A stretch of DNA of 64,000 bases from Prauserella halophila (GTDB taxonomy: Bacteria > Actinomycetota > Actinomycetes > Mycobacteriales > Pseudonocardiaceae). A model generated the notes under the pieces. That model was not told where the DNA came from. It saw only the letters and a program-made list of their open reading frames with translations, and did no database searches. Both the position numbers and the translations under genes were made by a program. Below, in pieces: positions 3,842-49,466 of this stretch; position 1 is the first letter of the stretch; each line of letters opens with the position of its first letter. The stretch lies in NCBI RefSeq assembly GCF_024171895.1, contig NZ_JAMTCQ010000008.1:744001-808000 (forward strand), given 5' to 3'.

Positions 3842-5371
3842 ATGACCTCCGACAATCCCCGGCGCACGCGGTCGAACCCGGACGCCTCGACAGGGCAGGA
3901 CCCGAAGACCGAGAAGACCGCGCGCTCGACACCGCCGGCCTCGAAGTCCTCCTCGTCGAAACCCCCGAAACCGAAACCCCCGAAACCGAAGACCCCGAAA
4001 CCGAAACCCCCGAAACCGAAGACCCCGACACCGAAACGCGCGGAATCGGACACCCCGGCATCAGACATCCCGGCGTCGGAACCCCCGGCGTCGGAGACCA
4101 CGGAATCGGAGACCACGGAATCGGAGACCACGGAATCGGGAGCCCCTCCCTCGAGGAGTACGTCGGACGCGGCCTCGGGCACCGTACGCGGGCGGAACCG
4201 GTTGTCGGCGCGAACGCTGCGGGACCTGGAACGCTCCTCCGGCAGGATCGCCAAGGCCAGCGTCGCCGCGATGGAAGAGCGGCTGTCCTGGTTCAGCAGG
4301 TTGCCCGCCGACCAGCGCGCCAGCGTCCTGTTCATCACCCAGGCCGGCGCCACGGGGTTCGTCCGCTGGCTGCGGGATCCCGAGCACGCTCTGGAACTGA
4401 CGACCGAGGCGTTCCGCGGCGCCCCGCGCGACCTGTCGCGCTGGATCAGCCTGCGCCAGACGGTCGGCCTGGTGCGGCTGGCGATCGAGGTCTTCGAGCA
4501 GCAGTTGCCCGACTTCGCGGCCGACGAGACCGAAAGCGCCGCACTGGTCGAAGGCATCCTGCGCTACGGCCGCGAAGTGGCGTTCGCCGCCGCGAGTTCG
4601 TACGCCGCCGCGGCCGAGGCGCGCGGCGCGTGGGACGCGCGGCTCGAAGCACTGGTCGTCGACGGCATCGTCCGCGGGGACGCCGAGGAGTCCGTGCTGT
4701 CCCGGGCGGCCGCACTCGGCTGGGACCCCGCGGCCAGCGCGACGGTGATGGTCGGCACGTCACCGTCGGACGATCCGCCGACCGTGGTCTTCGAGGTGCG
4801 CAGCCGGGCCGCACGCGCCGGTTGTCCGGTACTGCTCGGGGTGCAGGGCACGCGGCTCGTCGTCGTGGCGGGCGGAGCGGACGACGAGCAGACTCGCGAC
4901 GGCGCGCTGCTGGACACCCTGGCTGCGGCGTTCGGAGACGGGCCGATCGTCGCCGGACCGACGGTCGGCAGCCTCGGCGAGGCGCACGCCAGCGCCGCCG
5001 AAGCCCTGTCGGCCATGCGCGCCGTCGTGGCGTGGCCGGGCGCGCCCCGTCCGGTGCGCTCGATCGACCTCCTGCCCGAACGCGCCCTCGCCGGCGATCC
5101 GTCCGCCGAGCGGCGGCTCGTCGACGAGATCGCCAGGCCACTGGAGGAGGCCGGTCCCGCACTGCTGGCCACGGTCGAGGGGTACCTCGAGACCGGCGGT
5201 GTCCTCGAGATGTGCGCCCGCCAGCTGTTCGTGCACCCGAACACGGTGCGCTACCGGCTGCGCAAGGCCGCCGAGCTGTCCGGCCGTAACGCAGCGGACC
5301 CGCGGGATGCGCTCGTGCTGCGCGTCGCGCTGGCCGCGAGCAGACTCGGCCGCAGCCGCGGTCAGTGGTGA
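3842..5371 (+). CDS. fasR: FasR-like PucR-family regulator of fatty acid synthesis
   Basis: The C-terminus carries a PucR-type helix-turn-helix (ARQLFVHPNTVRYRLRKAAE), and the middle region matches the PucR/CdaR-like regulators encoded upstream of fabD in Streptomyces (FasR) and mycobacteria (Rv2242). By that family it should activate the downstream fabD-fabH-acpP-fabF genes. The conserved part starts near residue 119 (RLSARTLRDLERSSG). The first 118 residues are low complexity: five KPPKP-type 15-bp repeats, then three ETTES repeats. The ATG at 3842 has no strong ribosome binding site, and a TTG just before the conserved part is an alternative start. The protein is presumed cytoplasmic and DNA-binding. 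Confidence 0.85.
   Translation: MTSDNPRRTRSNPDASTGQDPKTEKTARSTPPASKSSSSKPPKPKPPKPKTPKPKPPKPKTPTPKRAESDTPASDIPASEPPASETTESETTESETTESGAPPSRSTSDAASGTVRGRNRLSARTLRDLERSSGRIAKASVAAMEERLSWFSRLPADQRASVLFITQAGATGFVRWLRDPEHALELTTEAFRGAPRDLSRWISLRQTVGLVRLAIEVFEQQLPDFAADETESAALVEGILRYGREVAFAAASSYAAAAEARGAWDARLEALVVDGIVRGDAEESVLSRAAALGWDPAASATVMVGTSPSDDPPTVVFEVRSRAARAGCPVLLGVQGTRLVVVAGGADDEQTRDGALLDTLAAAFGDGPIVAGPTVGSLGEAHASAAEALSAMRAVVAWPGAPRPVRSIDLLPERALAGDPSAERRLVDEIARPLEEAGPALLATVEGYLETGGVLEMCARQLFVHPNTVRYRLRKAAELSGRNAADPRDALVLRVALAASRLGRSRGQW
3959..4138 (+). repeat. In-gene 15-bp repeats in the fasR N-terminal region
   Basis: Five 15-bp units (aaacccccgaaaccg and close variants) run from 3959 to 4033. 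A second array of three exact 15-bp units (gagaccacggaatcg) runs from 4094 to 4138. Both units are multiples of three, so copy-number change keeps the frame open. They encode Lys/Pro-rich and Glu/Thr/Ser-rich disordered segments. Confidence 0.85.
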
Positions 5372-44692: not shown

Positions 44693-44875
44693 GTGGGACA
44701 TGACGTCCTACCCGCTACCCACGGCGTCGCCGCTCATAACGTCCGGGTCATGTTCCAGCGACACCTGATGCGCGGCGTGTCCCGGCCGAACTGGGGCCAG
44801 GTCGTCGTTACCGACGACCCGCCCGAGCCCACCACCGGGGCCACCACGGCCGACGGCGACGAGGACGACGAGTGA
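44693..44875 (+). CDS. Small hypothetical protein
   Basis: The 60-residue frame starts at GTG 44693; an ATG at 44750 would give 41 residues. The C-terminus is acidic (TTGATTADGDEDDE). Its stop overlaps the next start (GTGA), suggesting coupled translation with the gene at 44872. No family is recognised. Position between regulator and small coiled-coil gene supports its being real. Confidence 0.45.
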   Translation: MGHDVLPATHGVAAHNVRVMFQRHLMRGVSRPNWGQVVVTDDPPEPTTGATTADGDEDDE

Positions 44876-45099
44876 TCGCCCGCGACCGCGAGCTGCTCGC
44901 CCGGCTCGGGCAGGTCAACACCAGTCTCGGCCGCGCCGTCGTTGCGTTGATGTCGGCGCAGGCCGACGGTGAGCTGCCTGTCGACGGGGTGCGCGATCTG
45001 GCCGAGCTGCTCGGTAGCATGTCGGCCGAGTTGTACCGGCGGGCCGCCGAGCTCGAGGGCGGCCAGGCACCGGAGCGGGTCGTGATCGACGCGCACTGA
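44872..45099 (+). CDS. Small helical hypothetical protein
   Basis: Seventy-five residues, mostly predicted helix (RDRELLARLGQVNTSLGRAV, then VRDLAELLGSMSAELYRRAA). It overlaps the preceding small gene by four bases and lies 108 bases before the deaminase gene. No membrane segment, signal or known motif. It could be an accessory protein or chaperone of the deaminase module, by position only. Confidence 0.65.
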   Translation: MIARDRELLARLGQVNTSLGRAVVALMSAQADGELPVDGVRDLAELLGSMSAELYRRAAELEGGQAPERVVIDAH

Positions 45100-45206
45100 T
45101 CTCGCCTGCCCAGCCGGTGACACCCCGCACTCCCGGCCGGGCAGGCGCACCAGGACTGTCGGGGTGATGTGCCAGGCTGCGCGCCGCACACGCTGGGGGT
45201 GGTGAC

Positions 45207-45926
45207 ATGTCGCTCGATCGGCTGGCCGAGACCATCGGCCGTGTCCTCGACCAGCTCGCCGCCGCACGGTCAGCACTCGCCCACGCGTCGCAGGCCACCG
45301 TCGAGGTGCGCGACATGTACGCCCAGGCCCTCGAGGGGGCCCACGACGCGGACGCCGCGCAGGTGCCCGGCGTGGCCACGGAGGCCGTCGAGCAGGTCGA
45401 CCAGCAGCACGGCCGCCTTGCCCAGATCGAGCCGCTGCTGCGCGGCTATCTGGACCGGCTCGGCGCGACCACTGCGCCCGCGTCGCGGCAGCAACCGGCG
45501 CCCGTCGCGCCCAGCGCCCCGGCCGGCGATCCGGCACCACCACCGGCACCGGCTGGGGTGTCGGCGCCGGACGGTTCGCGGTACCCGCACGCCGCGGCGT
45601 GGGCGGCCGACATGCTGCCGTCGCGAGTGGTGCCACGCACACAGCAGCGCACGGTCGGTCTCATCGACGGCGTGCCCGGCCAGTTCACCTCCGGCGTGGA
45701 CGACACCTGGTCGGGCGCAGTGCAGCAGCGGCTGCGCGACCTCGGCCTGCGGCCGCAGTCGGCGCGATTCATGCAGGCACACGTCGAACTCAAGGTCGCC
45801 GAGTACATGCTGACCACCAGGCAGCGCCACACCGAGCTCGTGATCAACAACGAGCCGTGCCGCGCGCGCGACGCGCTGCGACCGGGATGCCGCGAGCTGC
45901 TACCGCGGTACCTTCCACGTGGGTAG
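45207..45926 (+). CDS. SCP1.201/DddA-like cytidine deaminase toxin, truncated by in-frame amber codon
   Basis: Residues 1-90 form a coiled-coil-like helical domain, followed by a Pro/Ala-rich linker and a C-terminal deaminase domain from about residue 120. The zinc motif is H192-V-E194 (AHVELKVAEYM) with C218 and C228 (INNEPCRARDALRPGC), then ELLPRYLP, as in SCP1.201-like deaminases that include the double-stranded DNA deaminase DddA. A TAG at 45924-45926 ends the protein just before 22 in-frame codons (TLTVHGTTEHGEPYSETFEG...) that look like the family C-terminus and end in a TGA overlapping the next gene. The product is therefore either truncated or made by read-through. No signal peptide is visible. 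Confidence 0.85.
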   Translation: MSLDRLAETIGRVLDQLAAARSALAHASQATVEVRDMYAQALEGAHDADAAQVPGVATEAVEQVDQQHGRLAQIEPLLRGYLDRLGATTAPASRQQPAPVAPSAPAGDPAPPPAPAGVSAPDGSRYPHAAAWAADMLPSRVVPRTQQRTVGLIDGVPGQFTSGVDDTWSGAVQQRLRDLGLRPQSARFMQAHVELKVAEYMLTTRQRHTELVINNEPCRARDALRPGCRELLPRYLPRG

Positions 45927-45991
45927 ACACTGACAGTGCACGGCACCACCGAGCACGGCGAACCGTACAGCGAAACGTTCGAGGGGACGGC

Positions 45992-46396
45992 ATGACCACA
46001 GCCATCGAGGAACAGCCGGTCTACGACGTGAGCACCATCGACGACCCCGACGCGCTCGTGCTCATGATGCGCCGACTGAACGACGAGCTGACCCCGGACC
46101 GTGCGGGCGGGGTGGTGTGGAATCTGCTACCCGGCGCCGAGTCGGCTGCCGGTCTGGTCGCTGGCGTGAACGGCGCCGTGGGGTGCCTGACGTGGGAGGC
46201 CGATGACGGCACCGAGTTTGTGCCGGCGAACGGGTCGAACGGTGGCGAGGTCGACTACTTCACTTGGGACGGCCACCACTTCGTGCAGCCACCCCGCGCC
46301 GAGGTGCCGACCGACACGGTGTTCGACGCGGTCCGCGAGTTCGTCACCACCGGCCGGCGGCCGACCTGCGTGCCGTGGACGGAGACGCAGCTGTGA
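45992..46396 (+). CDS. Imm1 family immunity protein
   Basis: The 134-residue protein ends with VFDAVREFVTTGRRPTCVPW, the typical end of the Imm1 family, after YFTWDGHHFVQPPRAEVPTD. Imm1 proteins accompany deaminase and other toxin domains and neutralise them by binding. The ATG at 45992 overlaps the original TGA of the deaminase frame (ATGA). The gene itself looks intact, which would be expected if the toxin is or was recently active. Confidence 0.88.
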   Translation: MTTAIEEQPVYDVSTIDDPDALVLMMRRLNDELTPDRAGGVVWNLLPGAESAAGLVAGVNGAVGCLTWEADDGTEFVPANGSNGGEVDYFTWDGHHFVQPPRAEVPTDTVFDAVREFVTTGRRPTCVPWTETQL

Positions 46397-46546
46397 CCAA
46401 CGTCGGTAAGTGCAGCTGCCGACCCGGCCCGCGACACGGGCCACTCGGATGGGGACGTAGTCACTCGAATTAGGCATGACGAACCCGCATGACCAGGCCG
46501 AACGGCGTACGATGAAGGCAGGCCCATCACCGAGAGGGGGCCGATC

Positions 46547-46930
46547 ATGACCGATACGCCGGCCACCGGGCCCGTACAGTCCACCCCTTCGCCGGACCCT
46601 CCGCCCACGAACTCGGCTCCACCGGTCGGCCCGAGCGCCGCCACCGAGCCACCGGCGGCCCCGGCCGCACCCGACCCGCGGCGCCGGACACGCACCAGCG
46701 CGCTGTGGATCGGTGTCATCGTCTTCGCCGCCGTGCTCGTGCTCCTGCTGATCTTCATCCTGCAGAACACGCAAGCCGTGGAGATCTCCTACTTCACCGT
46801 CAGCGGCAGCGTCTCGCTCGCCGTGGCCATGCTGCTCTCCACCGTCGCCGGGGTGCTGCTCACCGCGATTGCCGGGTCCCTGCGCATCCGGCAGCTACGC
46901 CGGCGCATACCGCGCTCGCCCCGCCACTGA
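46547..46930 (+). CDS. LapA domain (DUF1049) membrane protein
   Basis: A disordered Pro/Thr/Ala-rich N-terminus of about 45 residues precedes two transmembrane helices (ALWIGVIVFAAVLVLLLIFI and VSLAVAMLLSTVAGVLLTAI). Between them is the LapA signature LQNTQAVEISYFTVSGS. The C-terminus is basic. The ATG at 46547 has GAGAGGGG upstream and a TACGAT -10-like element about 40 bases before. LapA proteins act in envelope assembly in other bacteria; the role here is unknown. Confidence 0.88.
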   Translation: MTDTPATGPVQSTPSPDPPPTNSAPPVGPSAATEPPAAPAAPDPRRRTRTSALWIGVIVFAAVLVLLLIFILQNTQAVEISYFTVSGSVSLAVAMLLSTVAGVLLTAIAGSLRIRQLRRRIPRSPRH

Positions 46931-47275
46931 CCGCGCGCCACACAGCCACGCTCCGACCTCGGAAGCGTGGCTACCCGCGCGACCGGTGCTCGGTCGGCTC
47001 CACCAGATGAACCCGGCGGTCGTCGGGGTCACGGCTGTTCGAGCCCACCCTCCCCTCGACCACCGCCCTCCCCGACCACCGCCGGTGCCGCTGAACCCGA
47101 CCGGGTCGCAGCTCGGGGGATTTCCCCATGGAACCGGTGCTCGCCGGAATGCGTCGGTACCATCAACGCCGTCTCGTTGCGGAGACCGTGCGCCTATGGG
47201 TACGAACCCGTCGGCCCGCGCGGCGGAACACAGGCGTCGGCACGGCGCGGACGTCATCATGGGGAGGGATCACGC
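46931..47275. other. 345-bp gap upstream of the type VII secretion-type locus
   Basis: No gene is supported. A near-palindrome gggggatttcccc at about 47115-47127 precedes the locus by 150 bases, and a clear ribosome binding site (ggggaggg) precedes the next start. Confidence 0.5.
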
Positions 47276-47590: not shown

Positions 47591-47623
47591 TCGGATCGAG
47601 GACCGGAACCAGGGGAGTTGCCG

Positions 47624-48832
47624 ATGACCACCGCAGGACAGCAGTCGGAGACGCTCGACGACCCGTCGTACGACCGTCCGAAGTCGATGGACGACATCGA
47701 CAAGCACTCCCAGCAGGCCCAGAAGCTCGACGCGTCGGCGCTCAACGACCAGGCCCAGAAGGTCAGCGGAGCCGCGACCAGCTCCAGCGAACTCGGAGAC
47801 AATCTCAAAAACTTCCGCGACGACCTGGAACGCAACTGGGAGGGCAGGGACGCCGACGCGGCCGCCGACCATCTCAACGAGCTGAGCAGGGCCAGCTACC
47901 AGGTCAGCGACAAGGCCGCGAAGGCCAAGAGCGTCTTACAGGGCGTGTCCTCGATTCTGGAGAGCACCAAGAAGCAGGTCGCACAACTCGCCGGTGAGGC
48001 CACCGAGAACGACGCGGCGAACCGCAAGCTGATCGGTGCCGCTCGGCAGCGGAAGAACAGCGCCGACGACGAGAACGAGATCCAGGCCGCAGCGTCCGAG
48101 ATCGAACGGCTGCGGCAGCTCAACGAGAAGAGCGCCAACGGCAAGAAGGCCGAGATCGAGGAGATACTCGACCACGCCGAGAAGCAGATCGACGAGCTCC
48201 TCGAACCCCTGGGCATCGCCATCGATGCCGGCTTTGCGTCCCGGCTACCGGCCGGCAACAGCGACACCACGACGGCCAGCGCGAGCCCCGGCCCCATCGA
48301 CACCAGTGGTGGCCAGGCGCCCGCTGTCGGCGGCGGTGCCGCAGGCGGTGGTGGGGACTCCGGCGGCGGTGGCGCCGTCGCCGCGGTCCAGGGCGACGGG
48401 AGGCCTGCCAAGCCGATCGATGCCCGGGGTGACAACCCGGCCAAGATCGCCGAACAGTTCCTCGGCCGCAACGCGGGCGACCTCAAGAACAGCGGTGAGC
48501 TGCCCGCGATGGAGTCGTGGGTACCCAACGACGTCAACTGCGCGAACTTCGTTTCCGGCACCCTCGAGGCGGCAGGCCTGATCGATCAGAATCAGGCCAG
48601 CGCCTCGGTCGACCAGCTCTCGGCCAACCTCAAGGCGGACGGCTGGGAGTCGGTACCGCTCTCCGAGGCGAAACCCGGCGACGTGGTGGTCTCCAACGGT
48701 GGCGGACACGTCGTGCTGTATGCGGGCGACGGTCAGTTCATCGGCTCGAACAACATCAATCCCGACGGTTCGCAGCAGATCAGCATGGGCGGCGGCAGCG
48801 GCCTGGTCGAGGTGCTCACCCCTCCGACCTGA
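47624..48832 (+). CDS. Type VII secretion effector with NlpC/P60-CHAP-like hydrolase domain
   Basis: Residues 1-200 form a long helical domain with the WXG motif (LERNWEGRDADAAADHL, Trp72) and coiled coils. A Gly/Ser/Ala-rich linker (about 205-270) leads to a C-terminal cysteine hydrolase domain: Cys306 in VNCANFVSGTLEAAG and His362 in GGGHVVLYAG, followed by IGSNNINPDGSQQISMGGGS. This arrangement fits peptidoglycan endopeptidases or amidases. The protein could be secreted through an ESX system as an antibacterial toxin or as a cell-wall remodelling enzyme. The ATG at 47624 has GGGGAG upstream; a TTG two codons earlier is possible. Confidence 0.82.
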   Translation: MTTAGQQSETLDDPSYDRPKSMDDIDKHSQQAQKLDASALNDQAQKVSGAATSSSELGDNLKNFRDDLERNWEGRDADAAADHLNELSRASYQVSDKAAKAKSVLQGVSSILESTKKQVAQLAGEATENDAANRKLIGAARQRKNSADDENEIQAAASEIERLRQLNEKSANGKKAEIEEILDHAEKQIDELLEPLGIAIDAGFASRLPAGNSDTTTASASPGPIDTSGGQAPAVGGGAAGGGGDSGGGGAVAAVQGDGRPAKPIDARGDNPAKIAEQFLGRNAGDLKNSGELPAMESWVPNDVNCANFVSGTLEAAGLIDQNQASASVDQLSANLKADGWESVPLSEAKPGDVVVSNGGGHVVLYAGDGQFIGSNNINPDGSQQISMGGGSGLVEVLTPPT

Positions 48833-48999
48833 TCGGCGAACGGCACCGCCACCCGGCAGGTCGACGTCCCCTGCCGCACTCACCCGACGCTGTACCATCA
48901 CCGGGCCGGGCCGGCCGCCCCGCAGATTCCGACGTCGGCGCCGGGACGCGGTCGTGATCATCGGCCGAACCGCTGCCCTGCTATCTGGGAGGTAGCTCG

Positions 49000-49410
49000 A
49001 TGCACACCCCGCCCGCGCAACCCGCACCGCACTCGCTGAACCCCGGCGATCCGGCCAGGGAAGCGGTACTCCAGGCCGCCACCGCACCGCTTCGCAACGC
49101 CGTCGGCGACCGGCTCGACGTGGCGGTGGAACGTCTCACCCGCATCGGCTCGTGGGTGTTCCTGCAGGGGACGATGCGCGGCGCCGACGGTGGACCGCCG
49201 AACTACACCGACACGGTCTTCGAGACGCGCCGTGCCGACGGTGTGATGTCCGATGTCTACATGGCGCTGCTGGACAAGGCCGATCCCGCGATCACCGACA
49301 ACGACCCGCGGGGGTGGCGCGTGACCGAATGCGCCATCGGCCCGACCGACATCGCGTGGCTGCCGTGGTCGGACCGGCACGGCGCACCGCGCGCACTGTT
49401 CGGAGCCTGA
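49000..49410 (+). CDS. Hypothetical protein, possible partner/inhibitor of the upstream hydrolase
   Basis: The 136-residue protein has the pattern LDVAVERLTRIGSWVFLQGT ... ECAIGPTDIAWLPWSDRHGA, which I recall from small proteins in other bacteria encoded near envelope enzymes. No signal peptide or membrane helix is visible in this form. GGGAGGT precedes the ATG with good spacing. Its place right behind the hydrolase effector suggests an immunity or inhibitor role, but this is positional inference. Confidence 0.65.
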   Translation: MHTPPAQPAPHSLNPGDPAREAVLQAATAPLRNAVGDRLDVAVERLTRIGSWVFLQGTMRGADGGPPNYTDTVFETRRADGVMSDVYMALLDKADPAITDNDPRGWRVTECAIGPTDIAWLPWSDRHGAPRALFGA

Positions 49411-49466
49411 CACTCACACTCGGTGACCGGCCCCGGACCGGGCACCCCGGCGCGACCATCCGTAAT

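What the first reader, a model, noticed from the sequence alone, without database searches (positions are those of the whole stretch)
45924..45995. In-frame amber codon just before the original deaminase C-terminus
After TAG at 45924-45926 the same frame continues for 22 codons (TLTVHGTTEHGEPYSETFEG...) and stops at a TGA that overlaps the Imm1 start as ATGA. The continuation fits the family C-terminus, and the TAG is one base from a TCG serine codon at the expected place. This is either a fresh inactivating mutation that leaves immunity intact, or controlled read-through that yields a little full-length toxin.
Basis: partly seen in the sequence, partly recalled or inferred. Interest (0 to 1): 0.75.

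Follow-up and report, generated by a model that had tools for sequence, protein, structure and literature searches.

The report
Disarmed bacterial toxin, immunity gene kept
A bacterium carries a DNA-deaminase weapon gene that a premature stop cuts off just before the end of its active domain while the matching immunity gene beside it stays whole, which looks like ordinary decay of one toxin rather than a hidden read-through switch.

Summary
TAG at 45924-45926 ends a 239-codon DddA-like (PF14428) deaminase toxin gene. The same frame runs on for 22 codons, resembles the family C-terminus, and ends at a TGA overlapping the Imm1 start (ATGA, 45992-45995). In 29 of 29 other relatives read, this codon is a sense codon and 21-35 more codons follow, so the gene is truncated relative to its family. 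A low-confidence model of an intact relative puts two strands in the missing part.

Nothing supports read-through. No CUA-anticodon tRNA appears among 48 tRNA hits, release factor 1 is present, TAG is used as a stop elsewhere in the window, and the RNA downstream folds no better than shuffles.

The same genome holds two other lost deaminase toxins with intact Imm1: one with a frameshift plus TAG, one reduced to a deletion scar. In Prauserella aidingensis the same locus has another toxin tip and keeps our Imm1 as an orphan (94.5% DNA identity).

Best reading: a recent nonsense lesion disarmed the toxin while immunity was kept, an early step towards an orphan immunity gene. It is a new example of a known process. 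Sequencing error is not excluded.

The parts
45207..45500 (+). N-terminal domain shared with other deaminase toxins of the genus; no Pfam or NCBIfam name found
   Evidence: 4 places in the own genome (this one included), 100-44% identity; no Pfam hit at E up to 0.01; no NCBIfam hit for the whole 239-aa product
45675..45923 (+). Deaminase tip as encoded, up to the stop; HVE at residues 192-194, PC at 217-218, GC at 227-228 (catalytic and zinc roles recalled)
   Evidence: PF14428 E 1.2e-11, profile 43-115 of 137; motif positions
45924..45926 (+). In-frame TAG that ends the toxin gene early
   Evidence: sense codon here in 29 of 29 other relatives read
45927..45992 (+). 22-codon continuation that resembles the family C-terminus; not translated unless the stop is read through
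   Evidence: no Pfam hit alone
45992..46396 (+). Imm1 immunity gene (134 aa), intact; its start overlaps the TGA at 45993-45995
   Evidence: PF14430 E 6.6e-14; 94.5% DNA identity over 45980-46396 to the orphan copy in P. aidingensis
45981..45991 (+). Purine-rich stretch just ahead of the Imm1 ATG, possible ribosome-binding site (judged by eye)
   Evidence: sequence printed beside that of P. aidingensis

Best explanation
The locus is one of several polymorphic deaminase toxin-immunity modules in an actinobacterium of the genus of Prauserella aidingensis. A nonsense change, probably recent, put a TAG before the last part of the deaminase tip. The cell would make a 239-residue protein with the N-domain and the HVE, PC and GC residues but without the final part of the domain, most likely an inactive or unstable toxin. 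Imm1 is intact and can keep protecting the cell against kin that carry a working relative of this tip. Shown: the stop, the truncation relative to the family, intact Imm1, and two other toxin losses with intact Imm1 in the same genome. Inferred: loss of deaminase activity, continued Imm1 expression although the toxin now stops 66 bases before the old junction, recency, and benefit of the kept immunity.
For: 29 of 29 other relatives read have a sense codon here and 21-35 further codons. The continuation keeps the family motif and the ATGA junction, and no other lesion was seen in the frame. Imm1 is intact. A second copy in the genome (L006) has a frameshift plus TAG and an intact Imm1. A third (L095) is a deletion scar followed by an intact Imm1 reading frame. 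P. aidingensis keeps our Imm1 as an orphan behind another tip, with dN 0.031 and dS 0.131 against ours. In a low-confidence model of the intact P. aidingensis tip, the part after the stop column holds two strands.
Against: Activity of the 239-aa product was not tested, and the model is weak (mean pLDDT 52.9). No tip ortholog at the same locus and no second strain of the species was available to show that the stop is recent. Immunity genes also decay: one Imm1 match carries a TAG (G133:C7) and the G005 copy is shortened, so keeping Imm1 is not universal. The low dS of Imm1 against its neighbours (Fisher p 1e-7) may reflect recent exchange rather than selection to keep it.
Confidence: 0.84

Rival explanations
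1. Controlled or tolerated read-through of the amber codon makes a small amount of longer toxin.
For: The continuation is still open and family-like, and a second TAG near the C-terminus exists in the same genome.
Against: No CUA anticodon among the 48 tRNA hits. RF1 is present over its cut-off. The RNA after the stop folds like shuffles (z -0.13). 0 of 29 relatives have a stop here. The second TAG copy is also frameshifted. UAG is reported as less leaky than UGA (PMC5289835, passages).
Confidence: 0.04
2. The TAG is a sequencing or assembly error and the gene is whole.
For: One draft genome of 16 contigs; no reads and no second strain could be examined; no other lesion was seen in this copy.
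Against: The assembly is reported 99.95% complete with 0 contamination. Two other deaminase toxins of the same genome are lost in ways that one wrong base cannot explain.
Confidence: 0.07
3. The short 239-aa form is itself functional, for example as a decoy or a binder of Imm1.
For: The N-domain and the HVE, PC and GC residues are intact, and two copies in one genome are cut near the same place.
Against: 0 of 29 other relatives read have the short form. The second copy is frameshifted as well. No second genome with the short form was found.
Confidence: 0.05

Closest known systems
DddA-like (SCP1.201-type) deaminase toxins paired with Imm1 (PF14428, PF14430)
   Same: Same tip family and same immunity family, toxin gene before immunity gene; the pairing is listed in PMC3482391 (passages)
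   Different: This copy ends before the last part of the domain
Orphan immunity genes left behind by toxin-tip replacement (polymorphic toxin loci, PMC3482391, passages)
   Same: Immunity gene intact while its toxin is lost; in P. aidingensis our Imm1 stands behind another toxin-immunity pair
   Different: In the window the old toxin is still in place and cut by one stop, not replaced
Split DddA halves used in base editors (PMC9276701, passages)
   Same: A deaminase tip lacking its C-terminal part; the halves are described as inactive alone
   Different: Engineered, with both halves supplied; here no separate C-terminal piece is known to be made, and the exact correspondence of positions was not established by a call
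Stop-codon read-through genes
   Same: In-frame stop followed by a family-like open continuation
   Different: No suppressor tRNA found, no notable downstream fold, no conservation of the stop

Membership tests
DddA-like deaminase toxin (PF14428) | Profile match over the curated cut-off | tested here: met
   45.1 bits against 25 for the 239-aa piece
DddA-like deaminase toxin (PF14428) | HxE and paired-cysteine residues (roles recalled) | tested here: met
   HVE, PC and GC present
DddA-like deaminase toxin (PF14428) | Complete C-terminal part of the domain | tested here: not met
   Match ends at profile 115 of 137; 29 of 29 other relatives read continue
DddA-like deaminase toxin (PF14428) | Deaminase activity | not testable with these tools
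   needs an assay
Polymorphic toxin-immunity locus | Constant N-domain joined to different tips | tested here: met
   Same locus in P. aidingensis has a related N-domain and another tip; N-domain at 4 places in the own genome
Polymorphic toxin-immunity locus | Adjacent immunity gene | tested here: met
   Imm1 at 45992-46396
Polymorphic toxin-immunity locus | Delivery to other cells | not testable with these tools
   A gene with weak WXG100 and NlpC/P60 matches lies nearby, but the route is unknown
Orphan immunity gene | Intact immunity gene without a working cognate toxin | tested here: inconclusive
   Toxin truncated and Imm1 intact, but loss of activity not shown
Programmed stop-codon read-through | Dedicated suppressor tRNA for UAG | tested here: not met
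   No CUA anticodon among 48 tRNA hits
Programmed stop-codon read-through | In-frame stop conserved in relatives | tested here: not met
   0 of 29
Programmed stop-codon read-through | Stimulating structure after the stop | tested here: not met
   z -0.13 against 200 shuffles for 84 bases; pseudoknots not tested
Programmed stop-codon read-through | Extended product detected | not testable with these tools
   needs mass spectrometry or a reporter

The most novel reading that the evidence does not exclude
One genome has two deaminase toxin genes cut by TAG within 22 codons of the end. The boldest reading not excluded is that termination there keeps the toxin dormant, completed only rarely by leaky termination or in two pieces through a restart at the in-frame GTG 45936-45938, with Imm1 kept as a guard.
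Probability: 0.03. Interest if true: 0.75.

Novelty: new member of a known kind. Interest (0 to 1): 0.3.

Why it matters
It catches a polymorphic toxin locus at what looks like an early stage of disarmament: toxin cut by one stop, immunity gene whole. The same genome shows two further stages (frameshift plus stop, and a deletion scar), and a sister species shows the orphan end state at the same locus. That is a small natural series for asking how orphan immunity genes arise and whether they are kept by selection. It gives no evidence for read-through or a changed genetic code.

Tried and rejected
Read-through: tested through tRNA anticodons, RF1, stop usage, downstream folding and conservation; none supports it.

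A C-terminal amber as a family feature: stop-flagged rows were six in the truncated listing and three in the truncated listing. In 4 of these 9 (L047, L048, L049, L052) the stop lies in or before the upstream part of the match. In 5 of 9 (L050, L051, L163 = L180, L178, L179) it lies further inside the domain. 0 of 9 lie at our position. So there is no clustering across the family; the unlisted matches were not seen. The idea that late stops are favoured because they spare expression of the immunity gene was considered and has no support in this small sample.

Self-deamination as the origin of the stop was considered and left: the column varies in relatives and gives no signature.

Structure: the one model obtained (intact P. 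aidingensis tip with the window piece as second row) has mean pLDDT 52.9 and was used only for strand order near the C-terminus. A fold search could not be started. The search of solved structures gave one distinct sequence, 8w20_A, E 0.00042; DddA itself did not appear at E up to 0.01.

Ortholog of this tip at the same locus: none found; P. aidingensis has another tip there. The protein scan of genome contigs gave one relative. Other strains of the species could not be examined.

Rows dropped: of the 29 other relatives, 23 went into alignment A1. L153, L161, L169, L171 and L172 were left out as close kin of rows kept (judged by eye), and L163 because it has its own stop. One search found matches in 104 of 390 genomes; only its 30 fetched loci were read.

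Full report
Observation. The window is G000:C1:744001-808000 of a 5.05 Mb genome in 16 contigs. ORF 45207-45926 encodes 239 aa and ends in TAG at 45924-45926. The frame goes on for 22 codons to TGA 45993-45995, which overlaps the Imm1 start ATG 45992-45994 as ATGA. The 239-aa piece alone matches PF14428 DddA-like with 45.1 bits, ending at profile position 115 of 137; the 22-aa tail alone matches no Pfam family. The next gene matches PF14430 Imm1.

Is it truncated? A search of 390 family genomes with the tip as encoded gave matches in 104 genomes. Its 30 fetched loci, own copy included, were read. In 29 of 29 others the next codon is a sense codon, and 21 to 35 codons follow before the stop. 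That stop is TGA in 27, TAA in 1 and TAG in 1. The base before the stop plus the stop reads ATGA in 20 and GTGA in 4. For one of them (L160) the aligned stretch ends two residues before the stop column. One of them (L163) has its own in-frame TAG further upstream. The window copy keeps the tail pattern and the ATGA junction. In the alignment of 23 of these relatives with the P. aidingensis tip and the window piece, the column at the stop is variable, so one particular expected residue cannot be claimed.

What is lost? A profile of that alignment finds one solved sequence, 8w20_A (E 0.00042), and the match runs through the stretch after our stop column. A model of the intact P. aidingensis tip has low overall confidence (mean pLDDT 52.9; block means 73, 65 and 74 over residues 121-150) and shows strands at residues 130-136 and 142-148. 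The stop column corresponds to residue 129. So the product would lack two predicted strands while keeping the HVE, PC and GC residues (their roles are recalled). In DddA, Lys1402 and Lys1420 contact the DNA backbone and Asn1415 and Asn1417 help hold a metal ion (PMC10442228, passages); these lie late in the chain, but no call maps them to our stop. [quoted passage not shown] Loss of activity is therefore likely, but inferred.

The same locus in a sister species. P. aidingensis DSM 45266 (L053) is the strain behind G001, since an 1,800-base stretch is identical. There the N-domain side (44856-45470) is 82% identical in DNA. The tip is of another type with its own Imm1 (L053 3759-4172). Behind it stands a second Imm1 (4227-4631), which lies in a 417-base block 94.5% identical to ours, and the flank from 47095 on is 80-82% identical. 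The two Imm1 genes differ by 12 synonymous and 9 non-synonymous changes (dS 0.131, dN 0.031), while four neighbouring segments have dS 0.49-0.75 (Fisher p 1e-7). So this Imm1 segment was probably exchanged after the species split. This fits the described picture of tip replacement that leaves older immunity genes behind (PMC3482391, passages). In another genus member (G005) only a shortened Imm1 is left, 80% identical over residues 21-106.

Other losses in the same genome. Of 8 PF14428 places, 2 hold a TAG; in the 7 genomes of the genus, 2 of 19 places, both in this genome. The second, L006, has its N-domain and tip in different frames and a TAG 17 codons before the next in-frame stop, followed by an intact Imm1. 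At L095 a toxin gene has shrunk to its leader, a short N-domain stretch and about its last seven codons, followed by an open Imm1 reading frame that is 44% identical to ours in the aligned part. An intact relative of our tip with its own Imm1 lies elsewhere in the genome (L007/L094). In other genomes, three nonsense-bearing deaminase genes (L050, L051, L180) are followed by an Imm1 over the cut-off; for the remaining flagged rows this was not examined. Against the pattern, one Imm1 match carries a TAG itself (G133:C7) and the G005 copy is shortened, so immunity genes decay too.

Read-through. The 48 RF00005 hits of the genome (30 as loci, the rest in 17 stretches) include no CUA anticodon (the Leu tRNA with anticodon 'tag' reads CUA codons). 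RF1 is present. Of 42 crude gene calls in the window, 33 end in TGA, 7 in TAG (this gene included) and 2 in TAA. The RNA after the stop folds like its shuffles (z -0.13). PMC5289835 (passages) ranks read-through as UGA above UAG above UAA. Nothing supports a special mechanism.

Reading. The best account is a nonsense change, probably recent, in one deaminase toxin of a polymorphic toxin system, with immunity kept. The toxin now ends 66 bases before the old overlap, so translational coupling to Imm1, if it existed, is broken. A purine-rich stretch stands just ahead of Imm1 here and ahead of the orphan copy (printed, judged by eye), so Imm1 could be translated on its own. What stays unexplained is that both TAG copies stop within 22 codons of the end. 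For one random stop in 262 codons the chance of that is about 8%. The second copy is also decayed in another way, and the first was picked because of its place.

Literature. A search for 'orphan immunity', 'polymorphic toxin' and 'nonsense mutation' together gave one paper, seen only in the listing. A search for Prauserella with 'deaminase toxin' gave none. Searches with stop-related and orphan-related words gave papers seen only in listings. No claim is made that this stage has never been described.

Noticed in passing
45207-45500: A conserved N-terminal domain of about 95 residues, shared by several deaminase toxins of the genus, has no Pfam match at E up to 0.01 and may be an undescribed delivery domain.
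   Followed up: partly
48883-49411: This stretch matches P. aidingensis in inverted orientation at 80% identity, a local rearrangement near the toxin locus.
   Followed up: no
46397-47094: A stretch with a LapA-domain gene (46547-46930) found no match in the P. aidingensis locus, where the flanking matches lie about 120 bases apart.
   Followed up: no
47618-48832: A gene with weak WXG100 and NlpC/P60 matches lies near the toxin locus and may hint at type VII-like secretion.
   Followed up: no
L093:1564-2600: Regularly repeated short palindromic units that look like a CRISPR array (seen in the translations; not tested with a repeat finder) lie close to two of the deaminase genes (L006, L008).
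   Followed up: no
L180:350-1491: Another deaminase toxin gene, in a different genus of the family, has a single in-frame TAG inside the domain and an Imm1 gene behind it.
   Followed up: partly
L095:2250-2762: Deletion scar of a deaminase toxin with an open Imm1 frame directly behind it, in the same genome as the window.
   Followed up: partly
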